Assembly (NCBI RefSeq): GCF_028583425.1
Contig: NC_072791.1
Span: forward strand, 30,263,368-30,327,367
Direction of reading: 5' to 3'
DNA from: Eublepharis macularius
Lineage: Eukaryota > Chordata > Lepidosauria > Squamata > Eublepharidae
Length of the DNA: 64,000 nucleotides
How positions within the stretch are numbered: the stretch's first letter is position 1; each line of letters begins with the position of its first letter. Shown here one piece after another: positions 12,180-64,000 of this stretch. Made by a program: the position numbers and the translations under genes. The notes beneath the pieces were generated by a model. That model was given only the letters and a program-made list of their open reading frames with translations, was not told the origin of the DNA and ran no database searches.

Positions 12180-13740
12180 TATTTTAATCTTGATTAAAAG
12201 AAATTTTATTGGGTAGGTTAACATACATTTCACAGATTACATATTCCATCCATTTCCTTTTCAATTTCCAAGTACTAATTGTCTTACGTTTATCAATTAA
12301 AATACATATTTCCCACCCTCCCTCCCCCTTTTACCTTAGACCCCCAACAGCACTAAAACCTGTTTAAGTCTTATAATTTCCTTCTATTCTAATATTTGTC
12401 CCAGTTCTCAAACGTAAAGTTCTTACATAATTTCTAATTCTATTATCATATACACATTAATAACTATCCATAGACCATAGTTGTCCTTTTACATCCCACT
12501 TGTTTTCCAAGTACTCTTTAAATTTTTCCCAGTCCTTTAAAAATTCATTTGAGCTTTGTTCTTTCAATTTTCTTGTCAATTTGTCCATCTCCACCATGTA
12601 CAACAGTTTTTGTATCCAATCCTCAATTTCTGGTATCTCCTCTTCCTTCCAGTATTGCACATATAATAATCTTGCTGCCACCAACATGTAGTACAATAAT
12701 GTCCTGTCCAGTACATTAACTTTTTCCATATTAAGCCCTAACAGAAACAGTTCAGGGCATTTTGACAAATTACCTTTCGTAATTATCAATATTTCCGCAT
12801 ATATCTTAGACCAAAATTGCTTAGCTTTATCACAAGTCCACCACATATAATAGAAAGAGCCTTCATGTTGTTTACATTTCCAACATTTGTTTGACATAGC
12901 ATTACTCATATTTGCTAATTTTTTCAGTGTTAAATACCATCTACACATCATCTTATATCCATTCTCTTTTAAAAACACATGTAGATATTTTCATAGTATT
13001 TTTCCACAAAAATTCCCATGCCTCCATTGTAATCTCTTTATTAAAATTTAATGCCCATTTGACCATTTGTGTCTTGACCGTTTCATCTTCTGTGTACCAT
13101 TTCAGTAACAATTTGTAAAGCTTAGAAATTATTTTTGTTCCCTCTCCAAGTAGAAGTTCTTCTAACTCTGAATTTCTAGTTCTGAAACCTACTTTCCTTT
13201 TATCTACTTCAAATATATCTTTAATTTGTCGGTATTGTAACCATCCATATTTAAAAGGTAAGTCTTCTTCTTTCTTCATTTTAACAATGTCTCTTTCTAT
13301 CAACAATAATTCCTTATACGTTATCCAGTCTTCTCCTTGATAGTCTGTATGTGGTTTTATCACCTCTGCCGGCACAATCCACATAGGCCTTTTCTCCTCT
13401 ATATATTTTTTGTATTTTTGCCAAACCAAAAAAACATTTCTCCTTACAAAGTGGTGTTGAAACATACCATCCATTTTATATTTTTCATTACATAAGTATG
13501 CATGCCAACCAAACAAATTGTTATGACCCTCCAAAGTTAACAGCTTATAATTGGATAAATTTACCCAGTCTCTTAACCATGTTAAACATATCGCTTCATG
13601 ATAGTCTCAAATTTGGTAGTTGTAATCCGCCCCTTTCTTTTGCATCACACAAATATTTTAATCAATCTATCAGTTGTTAAAAGTTTAGTCAATTGATAGA
13701 TTGATTAAAATAATCCAAAATTGAGGGTATACCACAAAGC
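12180..13740 (-). mobile_element. L1 LINE, ORF2 C-terminal part and 3' UTR
   Basis: The minus strand encodes the C-terminal region of an L1 ORF2 protein. The part at 12457-12978 contains the cysteine motif CWKCKQHEGSFYYMWWTCDK followed by AKQFW. The upstream part, 12953-13534, is in another frame, so one frameshift separates them. The copy is 5'-truncated. Near its right border, 13653-13671 and 13696-13715 form a 19-bp inverted repeat (TTTTAATCAATCTATC), which may mark a 5' inversion. A related L1 3' end begins at 63497. Confidence 0.85.
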
Positions 13741-14128
13741 AAAAAAGAAAAAAGTCCCATGGAAATAAAGGGAATTTCTTCATGGATTGTGTCTTCTTGA
13801 CACCAAGGGTGAAACTACACAGATTGACCGCAAATCCATGTGGGGAAACTTGGATCTTACCCAATCACTTGAAAAAATATGGTGGCATCTGATATAAAAG
13901 ACAAAAGAGGTACATGGGGAGGAATAGGCAACTGTCCCTAAATCTTGCCCCCCAAGGTGATTATTTCCCTGTCTGCTTGGTTTCTGATACCGGAAATGTG
14001 CGTGGCCTGGGGTGTGTTTTACTGGAACACATAAGTTGAACCAATTCCATACTAACAAGGCTTTGGCAGAAATCATTCTTGTTTAAACATACAGAACTGA
14101 TGTTTTTTTCTTGGTTGTTGTTTTTTAG
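13741..14128. other. Sequence just upstream of serpin 1 coding exon 1
   Basis: No coding frame. The last ~30 bases form the pyrimidine-rich tract and AG acceptor (14127-14128) of the serpin exon, so this is intron behind one or more untranslated 5' exons. I did not find that 5' exon or its promoter. Confidence 0.5.
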
Positions 14129-14827
14129 GGAGAAAAATGAAGCCCATTGTTCTTCAATTTTTTGTTTCTGGGATCCTAGCTAACAATGTTTTCCCTCCCA
14201 GTTCTGGAAATCAATACTATAATAACAATTGTGATCACCTTCAGTATCCCCTAGAAAGGAACCGTCCAAATCAGCCCAGTCAAGGAAGAGGTCAAAATCG
14301 AAATGAGATTGTGGTAGACAGTAATTCCAAATTTGCATTCAGATTCTTGAAGCTGGCTTCTTCCAGTGGAGACCAGAGGGACAATTTAGGCAAGAAGAAC
14401 CTGGTCTTTTCTCCCATGTGTATCTCATCTGGGTTTGCTATGCTGGCTTTGGGCGCCAGGTCACATACTTTAGATCAAATCCTCAAAGGACTGACCTTTA
14501 AACCAACAGAGATTGCAGAAAGAAACATACACGAAGGTTTCCATGATCTCATCTATATGCTGAACAGTGAGGACTCTGGCCTTCATATGGAAATGGGGAG
14601 TTGTCTGTTTGTGCAAAACAAGCTGCATCCACAACCAGATTTCTTATATGGACTCAAAAATATTTACAGAGGAGATATCTATATGGAGAATTTTAAGAAC
14701 ACAGCAGAAACCATGCAACACATCAATAGTTATGTTGAAAGGAAAACTCACGGGAAGATTTCTAAGCTTGTGGATAGAGTTGATCCGATCACTGAAATAC
14801 TAATGGTTAGCTACTTCTACATAAAAG
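14129..14827 (+). CDS. SERPINA1-like: Serpin 1, first coding exon
   Basis: The acceptor TTTTTTAG ends at 14128. Eight untranslated bases precede ATG at 14137 in the context GAAAAATGA. The donor GTAAGG starts at 14828 after one base of codon 231. The start was chosen because it is the first ATG after the acceptor and opens a hydrophobic leader; clade A serpins usually place the start in this exon. A polar Asn/Gln-rich stretch at about residues 24-58 precedes the serpin core, longer than in human alpha-1-antitrypsin. Confidence 0.93.
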
Positions 14828-17800
14828 GTAAGGGATGATAGTCTGCCTTTAATCTCATCTGTTTGCACCCTAGACAATCTAGACTGTCACCACATTTCAT
14901 AGAATTCTAAGTGGAACTTTATTCTCTGCACTGAAATTAGGGGTGGTTTTAAATTTCTGAACCAAACTAGTTTAAAAAATTATTCAAAAATATCTAAATT
15001 ACATTTTCATAATATTTATTATCTATGATCAACAAATAAGATAAAACATACACTAAATGAACCTTTGTTACAAAAATTCCCGTTTCCTTTACCTTCTTCC
15101 TTGCATGAATCAATCCGTTCTAAGGATCCTTTTTTTTGCACCATTTTCTCTTTCCTCGTACCCAGATTTCCCCCTAAAATGTACTGATTTTTCAATTTCA
15201 TCTATGTGTTAATATATTAATATTGTACATGTGTCTTATACATATAGATGATATACTGTAGGCATAAGTACAATATAATTGCATAGTAAAACCATAAATG
15301 TCCCTAAAGAATGTCAATAAGTCTACAAAAGCAACAGCGGAAAGCAGAGATTTGGAACTGTTAACAAAAATACATAAACCTTTGCACAGCTCATCCCTTT
15401 CCCCTTAGAAAATCTATTTGGACTGGCCATTGATTGTGTTCCCAGTAATATTCTGACTGTGATATTTCAGTAGAAATGCTAAAGAAATGGACATTCTCGA
15501 CTTATCAGTCCTATTACTCACCTTTAGCAACAAGCAACTACATGTTTAGGAACACCATGAGTGCAAATTGTTTAAAAATCAGCTACAAATTATATCAATC
15601 ATTTATAATGCCAAGTATTTTCAAAAATCCTACTGTTCGGTATTTATCAAGGTATTTCTTAGCAACGTGAATGGCTGCTGATTTGTTTGGATTAGCAGCA
15701 TTTTCACACATGCACAGCTTTTGGGGGGAAAACACACCTGTTTGTCAAGCTTTCAGTTATGCAGTGCCAAGCCAAACATAACCAGTAATCAGCTCACATC
15801 TGATCAACAAAGTCAACAAATACATTCAGTGCAAAATTTGCAGTGTTCCTAAGTGGGATCAGCATGAGGGGTGGAAGTCACATTTTCAATGTAAAAATTC
15901 CTGCAGTTCTTAAAAAAATTAATGTAACAAGGAGAAATGCTGTAGCTCAGCCTATTGTACTAGCGTTGCAATTACAGGGAATTAGTAACATAATCGTTTT
16001 ATTTATTTGATGCATTTTTATCCCATCCTAAATGCAAGGTGGCATACATAGTTCTCCTTGGGGCTTTTTTTCTGGGAAAAGAGGTGGTGGAACTCAGTGG
16101 TGGGACTCAGGACCACACAATGACGTCACTTTGGGTCAGCTGGAACAAGGGGGGAGTTTTTTAAAGTTTAAATCGCTCTTGGCGAAAATAATCACATGGC
16201 TGGTGGCCCCGCTCCCTGATCTCCAGACAGAGGGGAGTTTAGATTGCCCTCCATGGCAGACATGGAGGGCAATCTAAACTCCCCTCTGTCTGGAGATCAG
16301 GGGGCGGGGCCACCAGCCATGTGACCATATTCAAGAGGTGCCAGGACTCTGTTCCACCACGGTCCGGCTGAAAAAAAGCCCTGGTTCTCCTTGCTTTATT
16401 TGCATCCTCACAACAATCTATGAGTTAGGTTGGGCTGAAAGATCACCTAACTTATTACATGGCAGCATGGAGACTAGAACACGGTTTTACCAGTCCCCTT
16501 GTCCAATGAGGGTTGCCAACCCAGCACTGGCAACTAGAGGGAGACACTAGGGGGCAGGGACATGTAGATTGCCATTGCCACAAGGCACAATATCAATTTT
16601 GGCACAGTCCTGGAAGGACAACATTGTGTTGGGCTGACACTAAAGAATATTCCACTGAAACTCTAAGGATTTACCGTAGAGGTTCAGTGGAACACTAGAG
16701 CATCACCCGCAACAGGATGCTGTCAGTTCTGAGTTTGTGCCGGAAGTGACATCACCTAATTGGAGCAATGGCAATTCCTCCCCCCCCCCACACACACACT
16801 GCCCAACGGATCAGAGCTTTCAGGGTGGAGGTCTCCCACTATAGCACAAGACCTGGCTACCTTAAGTCAATACAGTATATACAAATACAGAGGAGTTAGG
16901 CGTGTTAGTCTGTAGTAGCAAAATAGAAAAGAATCCAGTAGCTCTTTTAAGACTAACCAACTTTACTGTAGCATAAGATTTCAAGAATCCCAGTTCTCTT
17001 CGTCAGATGCATGACAATTACTGTATACAAATACAGTAATTATTATACCATTCTGGCTGTCAAAAACTTGAAAAATTTAATCCTTTTCCTGCAGTCTGAA
17101 GTGTAAAATCCATCCCACCACCTCAGCACTCTGCTACCTCATTCTGCTACACGTGTAATCCAGGTCTATGTTTTGTGTGATGAACTGATACAAGAAACAA
17201 TAGGAAGATCTGCAAACAATTGCCTAGACTCCATAATAAATGACTGAGCAAATACCATTTCCTGTCCACTTCCCCCTGAACAAATATGAATGGCATAGGC
17301 TGTCAAAAGACTGAATTACATTCCCGCTTTTCATGTTATTTATGACTGTTAAAGGGATGTGTGCCCCCCCTCCTCATTTTAGCCACCATCTCCCATTGCA
17401 AAACAGAATGAAGGTGACTCTCCTGGCTAGTGAGGGCAAGAAATGCTTGGTACTTTAAACTTTTCTACATTGTTTGAATTATTATAGTCACAAAGCAGCC
17501 ACTTTGATGTTCCAAAGTATTAATTATTTCTTAGGACACTTCCAGTAGGTAGGAAAGCATTAGTGACCCCGTATTACAGATGAGGAAACAAAGGGTGTAT
17601 CAAAGGATTATGAGGCTTGCCCGAGGTTTCCCCATGACTCACTGTGAGAACTGGGATCTGAACTCATGAGCCTACTGTTCTCCATTCCGGGTTTAAACAA
17701 CAACACTGGTTTCTTAACTGGCATGAGAGGATTGTTTTGTTAGCTGTTTTGTTATCTGTGCGTCTGGAGGTGTGTGGGATTACCTGGGATTAACCATTTC

Positions 17801-37742: not shown

Positions 37743-40700
37743 AAGCAACGACACTCAATGTGCAAAATCTCTCTTATAATAATAAATATTTGATTTACAA
37801 AGTGCACGTGCCTCTTACTTCTTCAAACAGTGTTACAAATCCATTCATAACTACAATTCCTAAACATACAATAATCCAAAGACGGCGCAGTATACAAATG
37901 GACTTAGGTTTGGTAGAAACTCAGTCCAGCTCCAGTCCTTCAAATACTTCCTTTAGTTAGTTTGTTCATTCTTCTCATGTTGTTATTTCAATCCCAGGTT
38001 CTTCCAGGTAGGTGATACCGTTCTCAACGTTAAGGGGAAAGAAGGACCGCCACGCTCAATCTGGGGCCGGCTACGAACACAGATTTCGTGCCACCTTCTT
38101 CAGGAGCGTGTCACCTGTGGTTGACAAGGATCTATGAGTCTAATACCAGCTATAAACACTTCTCCCACATTTATACTTGTCATTTTGTACTCACACTCCC
38201 CCTCCGAGGAACCATCACCACTTCATATCTCTCCCGTCCTGGACAATGGCTAGACCTGCGCTCTCTTGCGTATTCACCCCTGTGAACTGCACCCTTATCT
38301 TCTACACCAGTTGATTGGGAACACTCCTTCTTAAAAAGACAGCACATAATTTTCACATCACCTAGCATAATCACTGTTCTACGTGGACCACTCACAAAAA
38401 ACAACTCAAGGACAGTTCATTGTTCAGTCCCTTGGGCCTGACGGTATCAAGTCTGTGTATCCAAAAGGCTTCTTGGCGGAGAAGCCAAGTTTGTAATGTG
38501 TCAGCACTACTCCTAGTAATGACCTCCAGAATCATTACCTTAAGGGCATTCTCTACATGACTATACTCCTTGTAATGTTGTGTAAGGGGGGCTTCCTGAA
38601 TGTTGTTGCGGATGCGTGATATGTGTTCTAATATTCTCACTTTCACAGGTCTTAACGTGCACCCCACATACAACAATCCACAGGAGCACTCCAAAGCATA
38701 TATGACCCCTTTAGTATTGCAATTTGCAAAATGGTCAATGGTCACCCTAAATCCTCTTATCATAATTTCCTTCCCCTCACAAAATACATTACATATTTGG
38801 CAGTGGCCACATCTGAAATTCCCCCGTGGTAAGTTGTGTAACCTGTCTCCGTCTTTAATATCTGCCCGTATCAGATCATCTCTCAAGCTTTTAGTTTTAC
38901 GAAAGCCTATTCTGGGTTTCAATTCACAGCCTTCTATGCCTTCTAACAGCGTCCAATGTTGATACACTATCCTTTTGATCTGATTGGCTCTCGGGGTAAA
39001 ATCCAAAGCCCAGACCATTCTTTTTTCCTGGTCCCTAACAGCTGGTTTAAAGAGCGACTCCCTTCCTACACTGTTTGCTCTCTCCCAGGCTGTCTGTACA
39101 ACCTTTTGAGGATAGCTCCTTCTACTGAACTGATTGCAAAGCTTCCTCCCGTCTGTCTCAAAATCAATTGTGGAAGAGGAGTTGCGCTTAATTCTTAGTA
39201 ACTGGCTGAAGGGAATATTCACACGTAGGTGCCGGGGATGGAAGGACTTAAAGTGCAAGTATGAGTTCTTGTCAGTTTCCTTGTTGTAAGTCTTTACCTT
39301 AAGCTCATTTCCCACCCCCCTGAACGTAATCACGTCCAAATAATTGATTTCATGTCTATTATATTGCCAAGTAAATTTCACATTGGGGTCTCTAGTATTA
39401 AGCCACCCACAAAACTCCTCCACTGTACCTATTCCTTTGTACACAAAGTAAAGATCATCAATGTACCGGAAGTACTGGATGATCTTTGTTCCGAATGGAT
39501 TGGATGGGTGTAAAATATGTTGATTCTCCCATCTACTCATAAATAAATTTGTTATGCTCGGCGCTGCCGAGCACCCCATGGCTACTCCCCTACGTTGAAA
39601 AAAGAACTGGTCCTGGAAGCGAAAATAATTTTTTTCTAGCACAAGGTCTAATAATTGCAACAGGAAATTTTTATCTAGTTGCTTCCCTGTCTCACATTCC
39701 AATGCCTCTTCCACTACTATTCTAGCTAGGTCATGCGGGATGATGGTATATAAAGACGCTACGTCCATGGTGAGGAGACAAGCATCCTCCTCCATGTAAG
39801 TGCCTTCTATCCTCTTAATAAAGTCTCTGGTGTCTAATAAGAGAGGGCGTATAGCTGCTACTGCTGGTCTCAGGGCCGAGTCAATCAGTATTGCTAATGG
39901 TTCCAAAATGGACCCACACCCCGAGATGATCGGGCGGCCTGGGGGGGGGAGTCTTTTTATGTATTTTAGGTAGTATATAAAAGACCGGAATGCGTGGTGT
40001 CTTAGCCTGTAATAACTTGTGCAATTGGTCATCAATTTCCCCCATTTCCCTTGCCTCATCAATGACCACCTTAATAACGTCTTTGATGTGGTCCGTTAGA
40101 TCAGAGGGAATCCACAAGTAACTGGAGGTATCTCCTAATTGCCTCATAACTTCCCCTATGTACATATCACGGTCCATTACTACCACCCCTCCTCCCTTGT
40201 CAGCCTGTTTTATTATTATGTTCCTGTCATTCTTTAAGGTGTTAATTGCTCTTTTTTCCGCACTAGATAAGTTTTGCCATACTCTCATGGGTTCCCTTTC
40301 CAATCGCTCAATGTCCCGCATGACCATATATTCAAACGTGTCGATCCTGTGATCAGACGTGGGAGGCATGAAAGTGGATTTTTGTTTAAGGCGGTTTGGT
40401 ATCTCAAACTCTGGGTTGTTGTTACTCCCAGATGTGCCACTGAAAAATGCTTTTAATTTTATCAGCCGGATCAATTTGAAAACATCTATTCTTGTTTGAA
40501 AAGACTGGTATCTAGGTGTGGGCACATAGCCCAACCCTTTGTTAAGCACCGAATACTCTGCCGGTTCTAAAGTGCGTGTGGAGAGATTGACCACTAAGGT
40601 TTCTGTCTGGGTTTGGGAAATGGTCTTTTCTTGCCTTTGCCTAAAAAAGGTTCCCTATTGCTGGAAAATATCGTTCTGCTCCGCAGTCGGCGGTTGCTAG

Positions 40701-47740: not shown

Positions 47741-50700
47741 GACAGTTTGGTGTAGTGGTTAAGAGCACGGGACTCTAATTTGGAGAGCTGGGATTGATTC
47801 CCCACTCCTCCACTTGAAGCCAGTTGGGTGACCTTGGGCAAGTCACAGCTTCTAGGAGCTCTCTCAGCCTCACCTACCTCACAGGGTGTTTTGTTATGGG
47901 GATAATAATAAACAAGGAAGGTGCAAGCACAAAAGTAGGCATAAGCAATGAATCAGTTACAAAGTATCAAATGTGTTCTATTGGAGTACCAACACTCTCC
48001 AATATATCAAGAAATAACATTCAACAGTGAACACAAAAACAGTTAATTGACCAGTGTACAAAGAATCAAAATAAGTACAATGGTTAGAGAATTCCAAGGA
48101 AGAAATTGGGTCCAAAAACGGTAAGTCCAACAGAGTAAATATTTCTTTTCAAATAAACTTCCTTTCTTCCAGGTAGAAAAGGGAACCAAAGGGCTGCTGA
48201 ATAGCTGCCTGTTGTGCCCTGCTGAATAGCTGCCTGCTGCGCCCAACAGTCAGGGCCGGCTGAATACTGCTGTTTCGTGATGTTCACGTCATCAGGGGCG
48301 AAATTCTATCATTAACAACATAAAAAAGTGTAACAGTGCACATATAATCAACCATAACATGATACTTATAAAGAACAAAGTATGAAAGACTTACCACCAG
48401 TCAAAAGTAAATTCTTACAGAGTGCACATGAAGTCAAAGATGAGTCTCAGCCAGTATCATATGGCACAGTAGCACCATGCAAAGCCACCGGGGCAATTAT
48501 ATATCAATGAATAATAGCAGAGAAGAGATCCTGACAAAACTTACTGTTTTGTATATACATCAACAAAATACAACTCACAAAAAACAGGAGAGATCAAGGT
48601 CACTATTCAAGCCTCTGGGTCTAAGGCTCTTTAAGGTAAATATCCATTGTGCTTCCTTTCTGAGTAATACTTTCTGAAGATCATATTTAGGGATCCTTGG
48701 ATCAGAGAACAAAACAGTGAATTTGAAATCATCATGTCTATGATTATTGTTCACAAAATGTTCCACCATAGGTGCATCCATTACTTTGAGTCTAATTCTG
48801 GACATATGTTCCAGTAACCGGGCTTTTAAATGTCTAACTGTGCTACCTACATACACCATATTGCATTTACATAGTATTAAATAGACAGCACCCGCAGTTT
48901 GACAGGTAGTAAAGGTTTTAAGTCTAATTATCTTGTCATAAGTAGGAATCTGGACTTGGTCTCCTGTGATAGCAAGAGAGCAGAGATTACAATGACCACA
49001 CCTAAAGTGGCCAGTAGGACGATTACCATCAGCTGTAGATGTTTTAAAGTCAGAGTGGATAACTAAATCCTTCAAGTTTTTAGTACGACTAAACCCTATT
49101 GAGGGGGGCAATTCACATCCCCCAATATCATGCAATAAAGACCAATATTTATGGACAATGTTTTTTAACTGTTGTGCCTTCGGTGTGAAATCCACTGCCC
49201 ATCTAATGCGATCCTCATAGGGCTTATGTTTAGGTGTAAGTAACCCCTGACGTGATGCTAATTGTGCACACTCATGGGCGGCAAATAAAGTCTTTTGGGG
49301 GTAACTCCTGTTGTAGAATGACTGTAACATCTTTCTGGATTCCTGCCTAAACTGGGAATCTGCAATGGCATTACGTTTCAAACGGAGTAATTGTCCAAGG
49401 GGTATGTTAGTTTTTAAGTCATGGGGATGATAGGAGCCAAATTCTAAATAAGAATTCCGGTCTGTGGGTTTCTTATAAGGTCTGACTTCTAAAGTGTTCC
49501 TAGGAGATCTGTAGACTGTAAGATCAAGAAAGTGTACCTATCCAAACTGGCTGTCCATGTAAAGTGGATGTGTTCATCAACTGTATTGAACCATGTTCCT
49601 ATCTCATCAAAGTTATCCACACACTACATGCATTTGCACATGACCTCCTTATGTGAATACCGTAGACTACAGCAAATTCCACGTGGTCTGCGTATGAATA
49701 AGCCTCCGGGCATGTTTGGAGAAAAGGATGCTTTTCGCCAATGCTGGGCCGCTATCCTTAATAAATGCAGCCTAGATTTGATTGCTTTGATTTTGGAAAC
49801 TTGCAAAGAGGAGATAGCAGATCTTGACAAAGAGATCACTCGGGTTTCAGAAACACTAAAAGTGTCGGTACCCACCACTGAGTTTGATAAAAAATTGGAA
49901 GATTTAAAGAGACACATTCAGGAATATGAGTCCAAAATTAGGACAATTAAAGCCAAAAATTAAAACGTGACTCGAATGATTATGCCACTGGGAAAATATA
50001 CCCATGGTGGGACCAGGAGTCCTTTAAGAAAGAGAGATTCACTTGGGCTAGACCATTAACACAATACTCCGACTTAGATACTTCGGAACCCTCCGAAACT
50101 GATAACTCAGGTGATGAGGGTACCAGCAGCCATAATCTCAGAAACCACACCGTTTACCCTAGGTCCTCTTTTTTGGCCAAACGCTCCTTTCACCGCAACA
50201 GAAGGAAAGTTTATTTTTTAATTTATCCTCCAGACAGCTTAATTCCATTGAGATGGATGTACTTAATAAAGGTCTTTTGTTTGTGCCCACACCTTCTTAT
50301 AATGCCTTTCCGAGCAGAATTGATTTATTTAAACTGATTAGGTTAATCAAATTGAAAAAGTTTTTTGGCAATGAGCACAGCCAGGGGGACACCTTTAAGA
50401 AACTGAAGAGTCATTCTACATTTGTCCCACCAGTATTTGATTCCAGTATCACTACTTTTGAGAAGATGGTGCTTAGGGACCTAGAGAAAATAGAAAGCTC
50501 CCCTGATCATGTTTGGTATAACTTTACTAAAATGGAATGGGAGGCTCTGAGATCCCTTGATCAAGGTCCTACTATTACTATCAAAGCAGCAGATAAAGGA
50601 GGAGGCATTGTCATCCTTGACACTGATGTTTACGTGGGTGAGATCATGAGACAACTTACTAACACAGAGCATTATCTCCGTATTGCTCATGACCCTACTC

Positions 50701-53215
50701 CCCACATACAATTGTTAATTAGGACAGTTCTGGATGAGGCATTATTATTAGGAGAAATTGATGATAAGACCCATAGAGCCTTTTTGAATCCTTCACCTAG
50801 GATCCCTCTCTTCTATATAATGCCCAAAGTCCATAAGGAGGTATTTCCACCTCCTGGCCGCCCCATCATTTCAGGGAGTAATTCCATATTAGAACCTTTG
50901 GTGAGATACATAGACTCATTTCTCCAACCTGCTGTGCAAGTTACATCATCCTACATCAGGGACTCTTGTGACTTTATACATCACATTGAGGGCATGTTGA
51001 TTGACAAGCAAGCGTTGCTAGTTACTATGGACGTTACGTCCTTATATACAAGTATATCCCATGAGGGTGCTCGCAACATTATTGAGACAGTTTTGCGTGC
51101 ACGCCCTGTTAAAATGCCATCCACAGAATTTCTTATTCAATTGTACGATCTGGTAGTTGAAAAGAACTTTTTTCGATTTGGTAGTCAGTTTTACTTTCAA
51201 CAAAAAGAAGTAGCCATGGGGTGTGCTACAGCCCCCAGTGTGGCTAACCTTTACATGGCTAGCCTGGAAGATTCCTTCATATCTAATAGACTCACCAATC
51301 CATTTTTTGAACAGATTGTCTATTACTGTAGGTACATTGATGATTGCTTTTTGGTAGTATGGGGTGTAGATAACTATGATGAGATAGGAACATGATTCAA
51401 TACAGTTGATGAACACATCCACTTTACATGGACAGCCAGTTTGGATAGTGTACACTTTCTTGATCTTACAGTGTACAGATCTCCTAGGAACACTTTAGAA
51501 GTCAGACCTTATAAGAAACCCACAGACCGGAATTCTTATTTAGAATTTGGCTCCTATCATCCCCATGACTTAAAAACTAACATACCCCTTGGACAATTAC
51601 TCCGTTTGAAACGTAATGCCATTGCAGATTCCCAGTTTAGGCAGGAATCCAGAAAGATGTTACAGTCATTCTACAACAGGAGTTACCCCCAAAAGACTTT
51701 ATTTGCCGCCCATGAGTGTGCACAATTAGCATCACGTCAGGGGTTACTTACACCTAAACATAAGCCCTATGAGGATCGCATTAGATGGGCAGTGGATTTC
51801 ACACCGAAGGCACAACAGTTAAAAAACATTGTCCATAAATATTGGTCTTTATTGCATGATATTGGGGGATGTGAATTGCCCCCCTCAATAGGGTTTAGTC
51901 GTACTAAAAACTTGAAGGATTTAGTTATCCACTCTGACTTTAAAACATCTACAGCTGATGGTAATCGTCCTACTGGCCACTTTAGGTGTGGTCATTGTAA
52001 TCTCTGCTCTCTTGCTATCACAGGAGACCAAGTCCAGATTCCTACTTATGACAAGATAATTAGACTTAAAACCTTTACTACCTGTCAAACTGCGGGTGTT
52101 GTCTATTTAATACTATGTAAATGCAATATGGTGTATGTAGATAGCACAGTTAGACATTTAAAATCCTGGTTACTGGAACATATGTCCAGAATTAGACTCA
52201 AAGTAATGGATGCACCTATGGTGGAACATTTTGTGAACAATAATCATAGACATGATGATTTCAAATTCACTGTTTTGTTCTCTGATCCAAGGATCCCTAA
52301 ATATGATCTTCAGAAAGTATTACTCAGAAAGGAAGCACAATGGATATTTACCTTAAAGAGCCTTAGACCCAGAGGCTTGAATAGTGACCTTGATCTCTCC
52401 TGTTTTTTGTAAGTTGTATTTTGTTGATGTATATACAAAACAGTAAGTTTTGTCAGGATCTCTTCCCTGTTATTATTCATTGATATATAATTGCCCCGGT
52501 GGCTTTGCAGGGTGCTACTGTGCCATATGATACTGGCTGAGACTCATCTTTGACTGTTTGACTTCATGTGCACTCTGTAAGAATTTACTTTTGACTGGTG
52601 GTCTTTCATACTTTGTTCTTTATAAGTATCATGTTATGGTTGATTATATGTGCACTGTTACACTTTTTTATGTTGTTAATGATAGAATTTCGCCCCTGAT
52701 GACGTGAACATCACGAAACAGCAGTATTCAGCCGGCCCTGACTGTTGGGCGCAGCAGGCAGCTATTCAGCAGGGCACAACAGGCAGCTATTCAGCAGCCC
52801 TTTGGTTCCCTTTTCTACCTGGAAGAAAGGAAGTTTATTTGAAAAGAAATATTTACTCTGTTGGACTTACCGTTTTTGGACCCAATTTCTTCCTTGGAAT
52901 TATCTAACCATTGTACTTAATTTGATTCTTTGTACACTGGTCAATTAACTGTTTTTGTGTTCACTGTTGAATGTTATTTCTTGATATACTGGAGAGTGTT
53001 GGTACTCCAATAGAACACATTTGATACTTTGTAACTGATTCATTGCTTATGCCTACTTTTGTGCTTGCACCTTCTTTGTTTATTGTTGATTAGTAGCTGC
53101 CTCTCTTTTGCTAAGGTGGGGATAATAATGGCATACTTTGTAAACCGCTTCTAGTGGGCATTAAATTGTTCTGAAGGGCGGTATATAAATTGAATGTTGT
53201 TGTTGTTGCTTCTTG
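47741..53215 (+). mobile_element. MIR-like SINE split by Penelope element 2
   Basis: The head, 47741-47909, runs from GACAGTTTGGTGTAGTGGTT to GGGGATAATAAT. The tail resumes at 53117 with TGGGGATAATAATGGCATAC and ends ATATAAATTGAATGTTGTTG. The 13-bp TGGGGATAATAAT at 47897-47909 recurs at 53117-53129 as the target duplication of the Penelope insertion. Confidence 0.85.
47910..53116 (+). mobile_element. Penelope-like element 2 with partial inverted copy
   Basis: The main copy is on the plus strand from about 49622 to 53116. Parts in order: a leading segment with a coiled coil (about 49640-49963), an N-terminal domain homologous to that of element 1 (VLNKGLLFVPTPSY, FKLIRLIKLKKFF), a reverse transcriptase (GRPIISGSNSILEPL, RYIDDCFLVV), a zinc-finger linker (FRCGHCNLC) and a GIY-YIG endonuclease region to 52412. 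A 5'-truncated copy on the minus strand, 47910-49621, matches 51365-53085 nearly base for base. A 13-bp target duplication surrounds both, so they arrived as one unit. Almost whole, about two breaks, relatively young. Confidence 0.9.
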
Positions 53216-53576: not shown

Positions 53577-53826
53577 GGAAGAGGGGAAGACGGAAGCTCA
53601 TGGTATTCTGTATTCCCAATCGAAACTGGGCTCCTCACACACAGGAACTGAGGTGATCTCATAACTGTCATCAGTGTTATAAAGGGTGCGAACTCCAGAC
53701 CTAAACTGTGTGTTCTTCAATGTATGAAGTCAAGGATGGCACATTTTGATTACAGGGCAAATAAACATCTTTCATTATATTCTTGAGGTCTTCAATGTGA
53801 ATATGACTCTCTTCTTTTTTGTATAG

Positions 53827-54510
53827 GTCCTCTCCCAAAGGGCACCATGTCGAATATCTACCTGTGTGTGCTACTTGCTGGTCTCTGTGTGCTTGCCAAC
53901 TGCCATCATGTCCCTGGACACCAGGGTGGCCACGATGGGCATGAACATCCACAGGAGGACCAACCACCAACTGAAAGTCACCAAGAGAATGGCCTTTTGT
54001 CCTATTGGAAGATAGCCCCAAGTGCTCTTGATTTTACCCTTAAATTCTACTACCAGGTGCATCCCGACACTGATGGAAAAAACATTTTATTTTCTCCAGT
54101 GGGCATTATCAATGCCTTTTTTCTGGTAGCCCTGGGAGCTAAAGGAAACACGGTCGATCAGATTCTTTCAGGACTTTGCTATAACCAGTCTGTGAACAGC
54201 TTGCAGGAAATAGATGACGGAGTCTACCACCTCCTACAATGGCTGTACCGTCCAGAGGCTAAACTTAAGCTGAGGCCTGGGAGTGCCCTTTTCACAGCTG
54301 ACAAATTTCAACTGCAACAGGAGATCCTGAATAAGGCTCAAGATTTGCTCCATGCAGATGTCATTCCTGCAGATTTCAAGAACACTGAAGAAGCTGTGAC
54401 CCAGATCAACAGCTACATAGAAAGTAAAACCCACGGGAAACTGGTGGATGTTGTCAAGGGTCTAGACCCAGAAATGGCAACGGTTCTTGTAAACTGTGTT
54501 TTCGTGACAG
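53827..54510 (+). CDS. SERPINA1-like: Clade A serpin 2, first coding exon (gene continues beyond window)
   Basis: The acceptor TTTTTTGTATAG ends at 53826, ATG is at 53847 in context GGCACCATGT, and the donor GTGAGG starts at 54511 in phase 1, as in serpin 1. It encodes 221 residues plus one base: signal peptide MSNIYLCVLLAGLCVLANC, a His-rich segment at 20-45 with seven His, then core text ILFSPVGIINAFFLVALGAK, VDQILSGLCYNQS and SKTHGKLVDVVKGLDPEM. NQS matches the human Asn83 glycosylation site. Oddities: the Ser56 position is Gly86, and the FKG ending strand 3A is VTG. Exons 2-4 and the reactive loop are not visible by 64000; serpin 1's first intron is 8.9 kb, so this need not mean loss. A neighbouring paralogue of serpin 1; the target cannot be predicted. 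Confidence 0.9.
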
Positions 54511-54652
54511 GTGAGGCACTTTGTTTTTCCAGGCTTATTTTATTACAGAACACAATCTACATAATATTATGTTTTAAAACCAGCACTGTCATTAACAACT
54601 TCTTTCTTATTTTATTTTACTCCTTTTACGTAGTATTTAGATGTCCATTAGA

Positions 54653-55010
54653 TTTCATAGAATCATAGATCTGGAAGGAACCTCTAGGATCATTAGTCCA
54701 ATCCCCTGCACAATGCAGGATATTCAGAACAACCTCCCCTCCCCACACACCCAGTGACCCCTTGCTCCATGCCCCGAAGATGGCAAAACACTGTCAGGAT
54801 CCTAGCTGAATTGGCCTGGAGGAAATTGCTACCTGACCCCAAGGTGGCAATTCTCATTACCTTGGGCATGTAAGAAGGGGCCACAAGAACTGAGCACTGA
54901 TGTAACCCTTCCTGCCTCCCCTCTCTTGATCTGCCTAGGTTCACAGAATCAGCATTGCTGTCAGATGGCAGTCTAGCCTCTGCTTAAAAACCTCCAAAGA
55001 AGGTAACCTT
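54653..55010 (-). mobile_element. CR1 LINE 3' end, second subfamily
   Basis: ATAGAATCATAGATCTGGAA at the left border is the CR1 3' terminus; ATTAGTCCAATCCCCTGCAC and TGCTACCTGACCCCAAGGTG follow. Wording differs from the copies at 10903 and 55774, so it belongs to another, older subfamily. It begins 140 bp after the serpin 2 exon, inside its intron. Confidence 0.8.
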
Positions 55011-55773: not shown

Positions 55774-56970
55774 AGAATCATAGAATCATTGGGTTGGAAG
55801 GGGCCATACAGACCATCTAGTCCAACCCCCTGCCCAGTACAGGATCAGCCTAAAGCATCTCTGACAAGTATTCATCCAGCCTCTTCTTGAAAACTGCTAG
55901 TGAAGGGGAGCTCACCACCTCCCTAGGCAGCTGATTCCACTTTTGAACTACTCTGACCGTGAAAAGTTTTTCCCAATATCCAGTTGGTACCTTTGTACAT
56001 GTAGTTTTAGCCCATTGCTTCGCGTCCTACCCTCTGCTGCCAACTGGAACAGCTCTTTGCCCTCCTCCAAATGACAGCCTTTCAAATATTTAAAGAGAGC
56101 AATCATGTCCCCCCTCAACCTCCTCTTCTCCAAACTAAACATTCCCAAGGCCCTCAGCCTTTCCTCGTAGGGCTCAGTCTCCAGACCCCTGATCATTCTT
56201 GTCGCTCTCCTCTGCACCCTCTCAATTTTGTCCACATCCTTTTTGAAGTGAGGCCTCCAGAAATGCACACAATACTCCAGGTGTGGCCTGACCAAGGCAG
56301 CATAGAGAGGGGCTATGACCTCTTGCGATTTCAATGCTATGGCCCCTTTGATAAAACCCAGGATTGAATTAGCCTTTTTTGCCACTGCATCACACTGACT
56401 GCTTATATTCAGTTTACAGTCCACTCTTACCCCAAGATCCCTTTCACATATACTACTGCCCAGAAGTGTATCCCCCATCCAGTATTTGTGCTTCTCATTT
56501 TTGTGGCCCAGATGTAATACTGTGCACTTGTCTTTGTTGAATTGCATCCTATTCACAGCTGCCCACTTCTCCAGAGTATTCAGGTCTTGTTGAATTTTAA
56601 TTCTATCTTCTTGGGTGTTTGTTACTGCTCCCAATTTGGTATCATCAGCAAATTTAATGAGCAGCCCTTCATCCAGATCATTGATAAAAATATTGAAAAG
56701 TACCGGGCCCAAAACCAAGCCCTGCGGCACCCCACTGGACACCTCCCTCCAATCTGATGAAACGCAGTTGACCACCACTCTTTGAGTGCGGTCCTCCAAC
56801 CAGTTCCCTATCCACCGAACTGTCCTATAGTCTACTCCACAGTCTTCCAGTTTGCCCATCAGAATGTCATGGGGACCTTATCAAAAGTTTTACTGAAATC
56901 CAGATAAATCACGTCAACAGAGTTCCCCCAATCCAGTAAGCTGGTCACTCGATCAAAGAAGGAAACCAGG

Positions 56971-58495
56971 GATTCGGTTTCGTTTTCTCAGCCATGTCGG
57001 ACGCTCCTCTCCGCGGGTCCGGGAGGAAGCGCCCGAGCACCCTGACCGGGCGGCTGATCTGCAAGGATTAGCCCCCAGGACTCCCAGTTAGGGAGGCAGG
57101 GTCCAGGACGCTGCGGGAAGAACCCCCCGAAATCTATGCGGGGGGGGGAATTGCCCATTTGTCCCTATGGAGGCCGGCAGACGTGCGCGGCGCCTTGAGT
57201 GCCGCCGGGCAATGAGAAACGGCAAATAAAAGAAACAGGCGGAAGCCTGTAAACAAGCGAATCCCTTCTGTTCTACAAGCGTTTGTGAAGGAGTGGTGGA
57301 TCTGAAGAAGACTCGCTCTTCCCCTTCGGTGAGTTCCAGAATTCGGCTGGCGCCCCCCCCCCCTAAAATGGCTGCAAAGAAGCAAAGTCCCGCTCTGGGT
57401 AAGTCAATCTCGGCTACCTTACAGAAGGGAGACTCGCTCGAAGAATTGGTGCGCAGGGCGGGGGTGGAAGCTATAAAACCCTTTGTTGACAAGCTGAACG
57501 AAACTGATCAAAGGGTGGGCTTAATTGAAAGCGAAGTGAAAACCATTAAGGAAGCAGCGGGGGGGGCAGAGAAGTCTGCTCTGGAAAGTGCGTCACTTGT
57601 GAAGGCTACGAAAAAAGAGCTGAAGTTGGTGGAGAACCAGCTGATCGGGCTACAGGTGGAACGAACGCAGACAATTTTGCACCTCCAAAATATGAAAGAG
57701 GAGGAAAATGAGGATCTGTGGGGTTTGGTCTCGGAACTACTGGCGACACCCGCGAGGACAACTAAAGAAGAGGTCAAAAGCGCCATTTTGGAGGTCCGTC
57801 GGGCTTCTTCAAAATATGCAATAAAGCGACAGCTGCCTCGCGAGATCATCATTGACTTTTCATTTAAAAAGATTCGGGACACTATCCTATATAACTCATA
57901 CAATGCGGATTTGGACTTTATGGGCAATAAAGTCAAGATTCTGAAGGACGTTCCATTTCTAGTCCGGAAAAGACGTTTTAAGTACAAAAAGTTCGCAGCT
58001 CTTCTGAGGGACCGTGGAATAAAGTATAAATGGTTACTTCCGGAAGGAATATGGTTTGGACATAAAGATCAAGCCTATAAGATATTATCAGAAGATCAAC
58101 TAAAGGATTTTGAAGAGAAAAACCCGGAATTCCAGTGCACCAAGCAGGAAGAAAGGGAGAAGTCTGAGGGGGGGGGGGAGGAGACGAGCACCGCAGTGGC
58201 GGCTGCTCAGAGAGAATTGCGTCCGGGACCCAGAAGGTGGAGGAATGTTTAATTAGAATTTGGAATGTGTATTCTGTATGATTAACCACTCCATCATTAT
58301 CTTATTGAGCTATTTTTTTTATTATGGCAGTACGAAGGGAAAACATTGAAGTGTAGTGTTGATTGTAGGTTATCCTCCCTTTTTTTTCCTAATCTCCCCG
58401 CTCCTTTCCCTTTTCTCCATCTTTTCCCTTCCCTTGTGATAGTCTTGTGTAGTGTTTTGTATATTAAAAAATAAAAAATTATTAAAAAAAAAAAA
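56971..58495 (+). mobile_element. HAL1-like element: L1 with ORF1 only
   Basis: CAAAGAAGGAAACCAGG (17 bp) occurs exactly at 56954-56970 and 58496-58512. Between them lie a GC-rich leader of about 400 bp, one open reading frame for an L1 ORF1 protein, a 243-bp 3' UTR and a poly-A tail (58481-58495). There is no ORF2. The perfect duplication and open frame point to a recent insertion. An L1 copy with internal deletion of ORF2 is the alternative. Confidence 0.85.
57368..58252 (+). CDS. L1-type ORF1 protein (RNA-binding chaperone)
   Basis: 294 residues from ATG at 57368 (MAAKKQSPALGKSISATL) to TAA. Upstream in-frame codons to 57293 contain no other ATG. ORF1 proteins trimerise through a coiled coil, bind LINE RNA and help retrotransposition (known for the family). 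Visible: a heptad-rich helix at about residues 25-120 (LNETDQRVGLIESEVKTIKE), then the RRM-like part (PREIIIDFSFKKIRDTIL) and the C-terminal domain (KVKILKDVPFLVRKRRFKYK, RGIKYKWLLPEGIW) near 165-250, and a charged Gly/Glu/Ala tail. It belongs to the mobile element, not to the host. Confidence 0.85.
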   Translation: MAAKKQSPALGKSISATLQKGDSLEELVRRAGVEAIKPFVDKLNETDQRVGLIESEVKTIKEAAGGAEKSALESASLVKATKKELKLVENQLIGLQVERTQTILHLQNMKEEENEDLWGLVSELLATPARTTKEEVKSAILEVRRASSKYAIKRQLPREIIIDFSFKKIRDTILYNSYNADLDFMGNKVKILKDVPFLVRKRRFKYKKFAALLRDRGIKYKWLLPEGIWFGHKDQAYKILSEDQLKDFEEKNPEFQCTKQEEREKSEGGGEETSTAVAAAQRELRPGPRRWRNV

Positions 58496-59075
58496 CAAAG
58501 AAGGAAACCAGGTTGGTCTAGCAAGATCTGTTAGGAACAAAACCATGCTGACTTCCCCGGATCACTGAGTGGTCCTTCAGATGCTTACAGATTGATCCCT
58601 TTAAAATCTGCTCTAATATCTTCCCAGCAACAGAAGTCAGATTGACCGGCCTGTAGTTTCCCGGGTCATCCTTCCTCCCTTTCTTAAAGTTTGGGATAAC
58701 ATTCGCTCTTCTCCAATCTTGTGGCGCATCCCCAGTCCTCCAGGAGGCCTTGAAGATGATGGACAGGGGTTCTGCAAGTTCTCTGGAAAGTTCTTTCAGC
58801 ACTCTTGGGTGCACCCCATCCGGCCCAGGGGATTTGTATTCATCCAGTGCAGCCAAACGCCTCTCCACTACCTCTCTGTCAATGTCAATTAGCCACTCAG
58901 GTGTCCTGCCACATTTTCTACTATCTCTAGATGTCCCTGAGTTCTTCAGGGAGAAAACAGAGGCAAAAAAGTCATTAAGCCTGTCTGCTTTTTCTCTGTC
59001 CTGCATCAGAGTTTCTCCATCTACTCCCAACAGCGGTCCAATTGCCTCTTTTACCTTGCGTTTGCTTCTCTCAAA

Positions 59076-59620
59076 GAGAGAGAGAGAGACTGAGAGAGTA
59101 CAATTGTGCTGGGCTTTAGTGGATAGGGAATTAGGGATCTATCTCCTCTGCTTCCAGGGCTGCTGCCTGGCTCTGGGACCAAGCTCTGTGGGCACCTTGG
59201 CTGAGGGCTCACATACATTAGTGCCTGGTCATGTCTGTGGGAGTGGTGGTGGGCTAGGACTCTAGTCCCTCTCTCTCTCTGGTTCCAGGGCTGCTGCCTG
59301 GCTCTGGGACCAAGCTCAGTGGGCACCTTGGCTGAGGGCTCACATACATTAGTGCCTGGTCATGTCTGTGGGAGTGGTGGTGGGCTAGGACTCTAGTCCC
59401 TCTCTCTCTCTGGTTCCAGGGCTGCTGCCTGGCTCTGGGACCAAGCTCAGTGGGCACCTTGGCTGAGGGCTCACATACATTAGTGCCTGGTCATGTCTGT
59501 GGGAGTGGTGGTGGGCTAGGACTCTAGTCCCTCTCTCTCTCTGGTTCCAGGGCTGCTGCCTGGCTCTGGGACCAAGCTCAGTGGGCACCTCGACTGAGGG
59601 CTCACACAATGTCATCTCCT
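59076..59620 (+). repeat. 131-bp tandem repeat array, about 4 copies
   Basis: Units beginning TTCCAGGGCTGCTGCCTGGC start at 59152, 59283, 59414 and 59545, exactly 131 bp apart. Each carries GGGACCAAGCTCAGTGGGCA, TTAGTGCCTGGTCATGTC and a (TC)n stretch before the next unit. The copies are nearly identical; the last runs into the ATG of the hAT reading frame at 59609. An AG-rich run at 59075-59100 marks the left side. Confidence 0.9.
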
Positions 59621-62128
59621 CCTGAATTGTTGGCTAGCACTATGGGGCTCTGGGTGGGGGACAAGAGTGGTCGTGGGGGGAAGTGCATGGATTGTCCCAG
59701 TTGCAGCACCGGAAGCAGTGCTGCACAGGGCTCTGGAGCAGCAGGGAGTCCCACTCCCCCCAAATCATCAGTTGAGGCTGTGGAGGAGGCCCAAGAGCTC
59801 TTGCTGGCGGCGGAAGAGGAACTCCTAAAAATTTTTGGGGAGGAGAAGGAGGCCGAGGGATCTTTGGAGGAATGGTTGGGGTTCGAGGAAACCTCCAGCC
59901 TGTCCCCATCCCAAACTACCGGTGCTGCTGTCCCTGCCTGCAATCCACCCACCACTCCGTCTTCCGTTGCCAGCACCGTGGCACAGCCAGCAGCAACCCT
60001 TCGTCCTCCCTCCCCTGGAACCATAAGCTGGCCACGGTTGAAAAGCAACGTTTGGAGGCACTTTTGGGCCATTGGTAATGATCCCCGTGCGGTGCTGTGT
60101 GTGTGGGCCCCTGGTGCAAAGAGGCAACAACCTGCAGCACCTGTCATCGTCGAACCTCACTCTGCACCTGAAAAGGTACCACCCGAGCCTGTGGTCTCTG
60201 TCCTCAGGCAGCAAAACTTCTGTCGGGGGAAAACGGAGGGCCACCAGTGAGTCTGATCCAGGATTGGTGGGAGGGTCTCCAGAATGCACCCAGAGCAAGA
60301 AGCCTTGCCCCGAGGATGCGGCTGGTGGGAGCGGAAGGCTCAGGCAGGCCTCCCTGGGGGAAGTTGTTCCCTCAGGGTCGAGGGTGGTGCCGCTGAAAAG
60401 GGTGAGGTCAAGGGCTCAGGAGGCGGAAATTCGTGCAGCGGCACAGATGATCGCCCTGCAAGGCTTCCCCCTGTTGGTCGTGGAGGGCATGGGTTTCCAA
60501 CTGCTGTTTGAGCACTTTGCCCCATGGTTCTCGATGCCATCACAGTGCACCATTTGGCGTCGAGTCATGCCTGCCCTGTATGAGGCGGTGCGAGACATGG
60601 TGCACAGAGACCTGTCAGCCACCAAGGGCAGAACAGTCCACTTCACGGCCGACCTGTAGAGCGGCTGCCATCACGAGTACCTGGCCATCACTGCCCACTG
60701 GTGGCAACCACAGGAACTCCACCTCCCCAGGCCAAGATCTGGTCGATGTAAAAAGGCGCCCAAATTGAGCCCAGACTATAGAGTGGTTCTCCTTCAGGCC
60801 CGGGGGATGGATGAGGTCCACACCGGCAAGAACATCGCCACCACTGTCAAGGCGGCTCTGAGGGAGTGGATGTCTGGGGTGGACCATGGCTACATGGTCA
60901 TGGACACGGGAGCCAACATGTTGGCAGCCCTGAGAGAGGCATCCCTCCCGGGCCTGGTGTGCATGGCACAAAAGCTGCACCTTGTCATGCGGGACGTGCT
61001 CGGGCTGGGGAGCAAGCTGAGGGACAGCTGGGACGAGGGAACCTTGCGGACGCGCAGTGTGCTGGACAGCTGCCGTCTCATTGCTTCCCACTTCTCCCGC
61101 AGCATCAATTCGTCCCGAGAGCTGTTCCAGAGGCAGAGAGAGGAAGGGGACCCCGAGCACCAACTGTTCCAGGACCTGCCCACGCGCTGGAACTCCACCT
61201 ACGACATGATCTGTCGTCTGGTGGAGCAGCAGTGCGTGGTGCAAGACATCTTATTGTCCTCGGATGTGCTGAGTAGGGGAGAGGAGTTGGGCCTCAGCGC
61301 CATGGACTGGAGAGTCCTTGACCAGATGTCCCAGATCCTCAAGCCCTTCAAGGATGCCACAGAGCTCCTATACTCCTACGAGGCCAGCCTGGGTTAGGTC
61401 CTCCCCATGATCCATGGCCTTGACCAGTTTCTGGCCCAGGAGCTCCAGCGGCAAGAGCTGCTCCCCAGGGTCCGGGAATTTCTCCAGAGGATCCATGCCT
61501 GTGTCGCTGAATGCCTGCATCCTCTCCACCGCGAGGCACCCTACTAACTTGCCTCCCTCCGTGACCCCTGCATCAAGGGCAGCATTGCCATGCAGGTGGG
61601 GCAGATGCAGCACTGGAAGAAGGAGCTCCGCAGAGCAGTGCTCCGTTTCCAGAGACAGAGGGCAGGAGACAAGGAACTGGGCAGCGGCGAGGGGCAGGCG
61701 GCGGAGGAGGAGGGTGAGGGGCAGGAGGTGGGAAGAGAGCCAGGCAAGGGAAGAGCCATGGACATCTTCAATCTGTGCGCCTCGTCGGTGGGCAGCGTCG
61801 TTGGCTGCAGCACGGCGGGCAGGTCCCACCCGGGTCCCACCCAGTAGAGGACTCAGCAGGGGCCATGGTGCGTGAGTACCTTTCGGAGCCCACCGAGCCT
61901 CCCCCCCATGCCAACCCATTGCAGTATTGGGCGAGAAAATCAGACCGCAGGCCGGACCTGTCTATCGTCGGCACCAACATCCTTTCCACCAGCGTGCAGA
62001 GCGAGTGGGTGTTCTCCCACCTGGGAGACCTCTTCCGTCCCCGCCTGGTGAGCATGTTGATGTTCATCAAGGTGAACCTCAACCTACTGGGGCACCCTCC
62101 CGTGGACCTGGACCTCCCCGGGCTCTGA
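59609..62128 (+). pseudogene. hAT transposase with BED finger and hATC domain (decayed)
   Basis: Parts in order: an acidic Ser/Pro-rich N-terminus (59609-60050); a BED finger (SNVWRHFWAIGNDPRAV, then CCVCG...LTLHLKRYH near 60090-60175) split by a frameshift near 60100; the early transposase region (GFPLLVVEGMGFQLLFEHF, SATKGRTVHFTADL); TAG in place of the expected Trp codon at 60657-60659; the central region HGYMVMDTGANMLAALREA and DLPTRWNSTYDMICRLVEQQ; another in-frame TAG near 61396; and the hATC region NPLQYWARKSDRRPDLS...TSVQSEWVFSHLGDLF near 61910-62090. At least four breaks in all. GC content is far above the flanks. No terminal repeats were found. A domesticated ZBED gene is unlikely given the stops. 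Confidence 0.85.
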
Positions 62129-63496: not shown

Positions 63497-64000
63497 CTTT
63501 CTTTTTTTTTAATTTTTTTTTAATTGGGTGAGTAATAAAAGACAGGAAAAAAATACAGATTTTCCATTAATCCCCTTGTTTTCTTATTCCTCCACCCTTT
63601 CTCCCCTCCTTATCTTAGACTTCCAACAGTTTTCCAACCCGCTGTCCACCTCTACATCTAATATCTCTATTTAACTTCTATAATTAATTCTTATAGCCTT
63701 AATTACCTTCTTTAAATGCTTTCCATATTAAAATACATTTCTAAACCATAAATTACATTTCTAACTTACCTATATTTCTTGTAAAGATCAACATCTCCTC
63801 TCTAGTTATTCAGTTAATAATTATCTAGCCCCCATAACTCCCCCTTCACGTCCCATTTCTTCTCTAAATACTGTTTCAATTTTCCCCAGTCATTAAAAAT
63901 TTCTTCTGAATTCTGTTCTCTTAGCTTCCTTGTTAGTTTGTCCATTTCTGCCATGTACAGCAATTTTTGTATCCAATTTTCTATGGATGGTATTTCTTGC
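63497..64000 (-). mobile_element. L1 LINE 3' end, continues beyond window
   Basis: A poly-T run at about 63500-63522 is the minus-strand poly-A tail. From 63840 the text CGTCCCATTTCTTCTC, TTCCCCAGTCATTAAAAATT and GTTAGTTTGTCCATTTCTGC matches the L1 ORF2 C-terminus seen at 12490-12690. The family is related to but distinct from the copy at 12180. Its 5' part lies outside the window. Confidence 0.85.

What the first reader, a model, noticed from the sequence alone, without database searches (positions are those of the whole stretch)
56954..58512. Young ORF1-only L1 (half-LINE) inserted into a CR1 element
A 17-bp exact duplication brackets a 1.5-kb unit with leader, open ORF1, short 3' UTR and poly-A but no ORF2. 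Half-LINEs (HAL1) are described in mammals; an equivalent in a squamate with intact ORF1 would be a separate origin or an undescribed family that borrows another element's reverse transcriptase.
Basis: partly seen in the sequence, partly recalled or inferred. Interest (0 to 1): 0.8.

Follow-up and report, generated by a model that had tools for sequence, protein, structure and literature searches.

The report
Gecko-type jumping gene carrying ORF1 only
This is a member of a large family of short jumping genes that keep one gene of the LINE-1 element (the RNA-packaging protein) but lack the copying enzyme, so they must borrow it; such "half-LINEs" are known from mammals, and this looks like a separate, deep lineage in what appears to be a reptile.

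Summary
Window 56971-58495 is a complete 1,525-bp element (leader, open 294-codon ORF1, 0.23-kb 3' UTR, A-tail) inside an exact 17-bp duplication in a CR1-like relic. In the same genome 40 of 40 scored copies share the ORF1-to-3' UTR junction, each with a duplication of 11-22 bp, mostly at an L1-endonuclease-like site. A 34-base junction pattern has 1,875 places. None of the 56 copies read through the junction has ORF2. A second family (F2), 75% identical in ORF1, has the same build; ORF1 differs between them at dN/dS 0.17, so the protein was kept by selection, most simply after ORF2 was lost. The protein is L1 ORF1p by profile, yet only 18-34% identical to four L1 ORF1s of this genome and a separate clade. 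Best reading: an independent half-LINE lineage that makes its own ORF1p and borrows an L1's ORF2p. Its ORF2-bearing parent was not found and is not excluded; helper and mobility are untested.

The parts
56954..56970 (.). left copy of the 17-bp target-site duplication
   Evidence: exact match to 58496-58512; 40 of 40 copies have such duplications, 11-22 bp
56971..57367 (+). leader / putative internal promoter; GC 0.60, CpG o/e 0.84 (ORF1 0.82, 3' UTR 0.33, whole window 0.28)
   Evidence: starts with GATTCGG in 33 of 40 copies; 79% identical to the leader of family F2
57368..58252 (+). ORF1, 294 codons and stop: coiled-coil, RRM-like and C-terminal domains of L1 ORF1p
   Evidence: window protein alone is under the Pfam cutoff for PF02994 (14.3 of 22.4 bits)
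57559..57566 (+). G8 tract in ORF1; length changes shift the frame in 11 of 51 full copies
58168..58178 (+). G11 tract near the ORF1 C-terminus; length differs from the window copy in nearly all other copies and alters only about the last 30 residues
58253..58483 (+). 3' UTR with pyrimidine-rich tract and AATAAA at 58470-58475; no similarity to the 3' UTRs of three L1s tested
   Evidence: homologous to the 3' UTR of family F2
58484..58495 (+). poly-A tail (A12)
58496..58512 (.). right copy of the target-site duplication
55948..56877 (-). CR1-like reverse transcriptase fragment on one side of the insertion
   Evidence: RVT_1 E 2.6e-16; the CR1 label is recalled from the sequence, no call names it
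58518..59138 (-). CR1-like reverse transcriptase fragment on the other side of the insertion
   Evidence: RVT_1 E 1.5e-4, 22 bits, under the curated cutoff of 29.6

Best explanation
A non-autonomous 'half-LINE' retrotransposon family of the L1 clade. Shown: a fixed unit of leader, ORF1, short 3' UTR and A-tail; well over a thousand places with its junction; long target-site duplications, mostly at an L1-endonuclease-like site; at least two families, 25% apart in ORF1, that lack ORF2; and ORF1 kept under purifying selection between them. Inferred: the leader drives RNA polymerase II transcription; the RNA is translated into ORF1p, which coats its own RNA in cis; an autonomous L1 in the same cell supplies ORF2p (endonuclease and reverse transcriptase) in trans, which copies the A-tailed RNA into a TY/AARA site. 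Also inferred: ORF2 was lost once, before the two families split, and the ORF1 lineage is now far from that of the L1s that help it.
For: 40 of 40 scored copies (of 6,358 first-look candidates) with the same junction; TSDs in 40 of 40, 37 of 40 at 15 bp or more, mismatched-pair control at most 9; site T-Y|A-A-R-A as the commonest letters. 3' UTR-only search: 16 fetched of 33 new places are all half-LINEs, 11 full and 5 truncated at the 5' end. Junction pattern 1,875 places, reversed control 0. ORF1-first test: of 190 exact ORF1 places 100 were listed; 83 of these 100 have the junction or 3' UTR 120-230 bp downstream or lie in a fully read copy, 17 are unresolved. Family F2: 40 of 40 scored (of 3,641 candidates) contiguous over most of ORF1 and the 3' UTR, 39 of them at 97-98% besides the query itself. 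F1-F2 3' UTR alignment score 75 against shuffles 28.9 +- 4.6, maximum 52 of 1,000. ORF1 dN/dS F1-F2 0.172, bootstrap 0.105-0.253. Within F1, shared and group-fixed changes 22 N: 23 S against a neutral 2.37: 1, p 0.002. L1 ORF1p homology: hhalign probability 99.1, E 9.7e-19 against L1 ORF1s of this genome; human L1 ORF1p E 4.1e-4. Possible helpers exist: L1s with endonuclease and RT domains and open frames up to 1,004 aa.
Against: No transcription, translation or mobility data. The helper L1 was not identified. The genome search scores only the most similar places, so older or more distant ORF2-bearing relatives would be missed, and 17 of 100 ORF1 places have an unread downstream side. Within F1 the contrast between shared and private changes is not significant (Fisher p 0.28 and 0.52), and private changes are also short of nonsynonymous ones (57 N: 38 S, p 0.02), so that test is not clean. 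9 of 51 full copies have a stop or a frameshift outside the G tracts, 11 of 51 a frameshift in the G8 tract, and the C-terminal G tract varies in nearly all. CpG richness is hardly higher in the leader than in ORF1 (0.84 and 0.82), so it is weak evidence for a promoter. The leader is more conserved than silent sites of ORF1, which leaves room for exchange of leaders. The AlphaFold model is poor (mean pLDDT 54). No Pfam match of a half-LINE ORF1 passes the curated cutoff.
Confidence: 0.87

Rival explanations
1. A single L1 that lost ORF2 by deletion (or a deletion copied with its surroundings).
For: No ORF2 at this locus.
Against: 1,875 junction places; the 40 copies read sit in different flanks with their own TSDs; a second family shares the build.
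Confidence: 0.01
2. A hidden full-length L1 with this ORF1 still exists, and the short copies are made over and over from prematurely polyadenylated or spliced L1 transcripts.
For: The genome search scores only the best candidates, so distant ORF2-bearing relatives are not excluded; 17 of 100 ORF1 places have an unread downstream side. That 3'-truncated L1 RNAs with ORF1 might be mobilised is said in PMC4859970 (passage).
Against: No ORF2-bearing copy among 56 read through the junction; groups with their own fixed changes run through the element, as expected if short copies are themselves the sources.
Confidence: 0.06
3. Two or more independent ORF2 losses from related L1 parents, as in mammalian HAL1, so that the selection on ORF1 acted in full-length ancestors.
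For: HAL1s arose several times in mammals (PMC5753468, passage); dS between F1 and F2 is about 1.07, leaving ample time.
Against: F1 and F2 3' UTRs are homologous and collinear from shortly after the ORF1 stop, so the same junction would have to arise twice; a further relative in the L016 flank has the same order.
Confidence: 0.15
4. Retrocopies of a host gene made from a domesticated L1 ORF1 (like mammalian L1TD1).
For: One long ORF and an A-tail would fit processed copies.
Against: Fixed 5' start and subfamily structure across copies, two families with homologous leaders and 3' UTRs, over a thousand junction places. An intron-bearing parent gene was not searched for.
Confidence: 0.03
5. Mobilised by another LINE (CR1, RTE) rather than L1.
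For: Other LINEs are present; a CR1-like relic is the insertion target here.
Against: Long TSDs, homopolymer A-tail and TY/AARA site are L1 hallmarks (the hallmarks are recalled).
Confidence: 0.04

Closest known systems
HAL1 (half-L1) of mammals
   Same: ORF1 only, poly-A tail, TSDs, no ORF2, nearly 2,100 copies in human, said to depend on L1 RT/EN (PMC5322556, passage; PMC5753468, passage)
   Different: Host is apparently a reptile; ORF1 is a clade apart from the L1 ORF1s sampled in the same genome; its 3' UTR matches none of three L1s and its leader neither of two. How close mammalian HAL1s stay to coexisting L1s I could not read: Bao and Jurka 2010 is not held.
Autonomous L1 of the same genome (for example L053, L055, L056)
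   Same: ORF1p domain order; AATAAA and A-tail; a 15-bp TSD found for L055 (none found for L053 and L056)
   Different: L1 has EN and RT; ORF1 identity to the half-LINE 18-34% over four rows; G-rich tract in the 3' UTR (by eye)
L1TD1
   Same: L1-derived protein-coding sequence (PMC4161310: start of abstract in a search listing, and passages); that it stems from ORF1 and lacks ORF2 is recalled in part
   Different: a host gene, not a repeated mobile unit

Membership tests
Half-LINE (HAL1-like element) | ORF1 homologous to L1 ORF1p | tested here: met
   hhalign 99.1%, E 9.7e-19; human L1 ORF1p E 4.1e-4. PF02994: 20.7 and 17.7 bits for two F2 copies, 17.8 for an F1 copy, 14.3 for the window copy, against 18.7 and 16.0 for two L1 ORF1s of this genome; cutoff 22.4, so none passes
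Half-LINE (HAL1-like element) | no ORF2 in the family | tested here: met
   0 of 56 F1 copies read through the junction (40, 16); F2 40 of 40 scored contiguous. Only the best-scoring places were seen.
Half-LINE (HAL1-like element) | multicopy with a shared junction | tested here: met
   1,875 places, control 0
Half-LINE (HAL1-like element) | A-tail and TSDs at an L1 EN-like site | tested here: met
Half-LINE (HAL1-like element) | mobilised in trans by L1 ORF2p | not testable with these tools
   needs a cell assay
Mammalian HAL1 proper | descent from a mammalian L1 lineage | not tested
   no HAL1 sequence was at hand
Derivative of an L1 family now in this genome | ORF1, leader or 3' UTR close to a coexisting L1 | tested here: not met
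   for the L1s sampled only: ORF1 18-34% over four rows, local matches 21-35%, separate clade 100/100 against 5 L1 rows; 3' UTR z 1.7, 0.0, 0.3 against three L1s; leader z 2.9 (score under the best shuffle) and 0.1 against two
Autonomous L1 | ORF2 with EN and RT | tested here: not met

The most novel reading that the evidence does not exclude
A long-lived, self-diversifying clade of ORF1-only retrotransposons in a squamate: it lost ORF2 once, outlived or left its parent L1, and has kept its own selected ORF1p while drawing ORF2p from L1 lineages whose ORF1p is only about a quarter to a third identical. That would show that ORF1p and ORF2p need not co-evolve, and that ORF1 can be the selfish, cis-acting part of an L1.
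Probability: 0.45. Interest if true: 0.75.

Novelty: new variant of a known kind. Interest (0 to 1): 0.62.

Why it matters
It is a natural experiment on why a parasite of L1 would keep ORF1. In a cell assay a pol II-driven Alu transcript behaved like processed pseudogenes and needed L1 ORF1p as well as ORF2p (abstract of PMC2666806), so an element that brings its own ORF1p and borrows ORF2p tests cis preference and the ORF1p-ORF2p partnership outside mammals. Two families with near-identical copies and mostly open ORF1 give material for that test. Such copies could also be misfiled as truncated L1 in repeat annotation.

Tried and rejected
Searching for an ORF2-bearing parent: L1 ORF2 fragments were used to sample L1s. 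Where an ORF1 could be read it was of the distant type; no match to the half-LINE ORF1 came from L054, L075, L079 and L084. A more distant L1 lineage (fragment in L069, 52% in RT) was probed, but the one 501-base stretch fetched upstream of one copy (L092) held no ORF1. So the parent is neither found nor excluded.

The junction pattern (1,875 places) outnumbers an ORF1 pattern (435 places). This could have meant junctions without ORF1. Five of the junction places were fetched with their upstream side, and all five have ORF1 directly upstream, with 2-4 differences in the ORF1 pattern and 90-93% identity, so more diverged subfamilies explain at least part of the gap; the rest was not read.

Structure prediction gave a poor model; its best fold matches are nonetheless human L1 ORF1p, best E 0.036, with no match at E 0.001 or better. 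Literature: no squamate or other non-mammalian half-LINE appeared in the held library by searches; these are search listings, apart from the passages cited. Repbase and Dfam could not be searched, so the family may be catalogued there.

The organism was not tested. I recall that the leopard gecko assembly MPM_Emac_v1.0 has about this size, scaffold number and N50; searches for that paper did not bring it up.

Full report
What is there. The window holds a complete 1,525-bp insertion at 56971-58495: a GC-rich leader, an open ORF1 of 294 codons, a 0.23-kb 3' UTR with AATAAA and an A12 tail, inside an exact 17-bp duplication. It lies in a decayed CR1-like reverse transcriptase gene on the other strand.

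It is a family. The whole unit was searched in its own genome (2.24 Gb, 72 contigs): 40 of 40 scored, of 6,358 first-look candidates, are near full length, 92-100% identical, the window copy included. All 40 were read with their flanks: every one has a flanking direct repeat of 11-22 bp, 37 of 40 at 15 bp or more, where 40 mismatched flank pairs give at most 9. The site reads T (24 of 40), T or C (32), then A (28), A (36), A or G (35), A (25), as expected for L1 endonuclease (the L1 motif is recalled). In a search by 3' UTR alone 40 of 40 were scored of 1,694 candidates; 33 were not, and 16 of these 33 were fetched: 11 full-length and 5 5'-truncated half-LINEs, none with ORF2. A 34-base pattern across the ORF1 stop has 1,875 places at up to 3 mismatches, 0 for the reversed control. 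Starting from ORF1 instead, 100 of 190 exact ORF1 places were listed; 83 of these 100 run into the junction or 3' UTR or lie in a fully read copy, and 17 are unresolved because the junction list showed only exact matches.

Subfamilies. Among 51 full-length copies two groups (23 and 28) are 2.1-2.2% diverse inside and 6.0% apart; further variants at 90-93% were met. The window copy differs by 1.2% from its nearest relative among these. ORF1 starts with ATG in 51 of 51; 6 of 51 have a stop in the window's register and 3 of 51 another frameshift outside the G tracts; the G8 tract shifts the frame in 11 of 51, and the G11 tract near the C-terminus varies in nearly all. These copies are the ones most similar to the queries, so the counts are not a random sample.

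A second family. The copy L031 sits inside another half-LINE. Searching with ORF1 (without its first part) and 3' UTR of that host element gave 40 of 40 scored, of 3,641 candidates, 39 at 97-98% besides itself, contiguous; two copies, L085 and L086, show leader and open ORF1. F1 and F2 are 79% identical in the leader, 75% in ORF1 and 63% in the 3' UTR; the 3' UTR match is far above shuffles. A flank of L016 holds a further relative with ORF1 end and 3' UTR contiguous. The shared junction makes one ancestral ORF2 loss the simplest reading.

Selection on ORF1. Between F1 and F2, over 256 codons, dN is 0.184 and dS 1.074, ratio 0.172 (bootstrap 0.105-0.253). Within F1 the shared and group-fixed changes are 22 N to 23 S against 2.37 to 1 expected from the noncoding spectrum (p 0.002). 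Against this: private changes are also short of N (57 to 38, p 0.02), and shared and private do not differ significantly. The leader is more conserved between F1 and F2 than silent sites are, so it may be constrained too, or have been exchanged.

The protein. Profile comparison with L1 ORF1s of this genome gives E 9.7e-19 over 155 columns; human L1 ORF1p matches at E 4.1e-4 over residues 42-256; the model is poor, but its best fold matches are L1 ORF1p. Pfam's L1 domain PF02994 is reached only below its cutoff, by half-LINE and by true L1 ORF1s of this genome alike. Identity to four L1 ORF1 rows of this genome is 18-34%; the tree splits 6 half-LINE from 5 L1 rows with full support by a very long branch.

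Helpers and parent. Autonomous L1s are abundant (46,044 first-look candidates, 88 scored; open frames up to 1,004 aa) and carry EN and RT. None of the L1 ORF1s sampled is close to the half-LINE; the 3' UTR shows no similarity to three L1s, and the leader none to one L1 and a weak score below the best shuffle to another. The parent is therefore unsampled, extinct or changed beyond recognition.

Mechanism. Most likely the leader is a pol II promoter, ORF1p packages its own RNA, and ORF2p of an L1 inserts it. Only the anatomy, the insertion marks and the selection are shown. That a pol II-made transcript needs ORF1p as well as ORF2p in a cell assay is from the abstract of PMC2666806.

Known or new. 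Half-L1s (HAL1) of mammals are the same kind of thing (PMC5322556 and PMC5753468, passages). A reptile lineage did not appear in the library searches named in Tried and rejected; the leopard gecko draft genome paper, passages only, gives LINE totals. I file this as a half-LINE by build, not as a member of the mammalian HAL1 lineages.

Noticed in passing
window 48575-49537 (-) and 50163-52412 (+): Two Penelope-like pieces whose C-terminal proteins look nearly identical by eye and lie in opposite directions; another such element at 38392-40654 (-), where 38392-40095 matches RVT_1. The Penelope name is recalled.
   Followed up: partly
window 14101-14838 (+) and 53787-54668 (+): Two serpin coding stretches (PF00079), so the window may lie in a serpin cluster.
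   Followed up: partly
window 59528-62128 (+): Long frames resembling a BED-finger hAT transposase by eye; no Pfam match for the two pieces tested.
   Followed up: partly
L038, L069, L031, L036, L026: Half-LINE copies sit in or beside L1 ORF2 (L038, L069), an F2 half-LINE (L031) and L1 ORF1 (L036, L026): nested insertions that could be used for relative dating.
   Followed up: no
window 57559-57566 and 58168-58178: Poly-G tracts inside ORF1 whose length varies between copies; the C-terminal one gives alternative ends of the protein.
   Followed up: partly
window 12457-13606 (-) and 63817-63999 (-): L1 ORF2 C-terminal fragments, the second only 69% like the L1 query in protein, so of a different L1 family.
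   Followed up: partly
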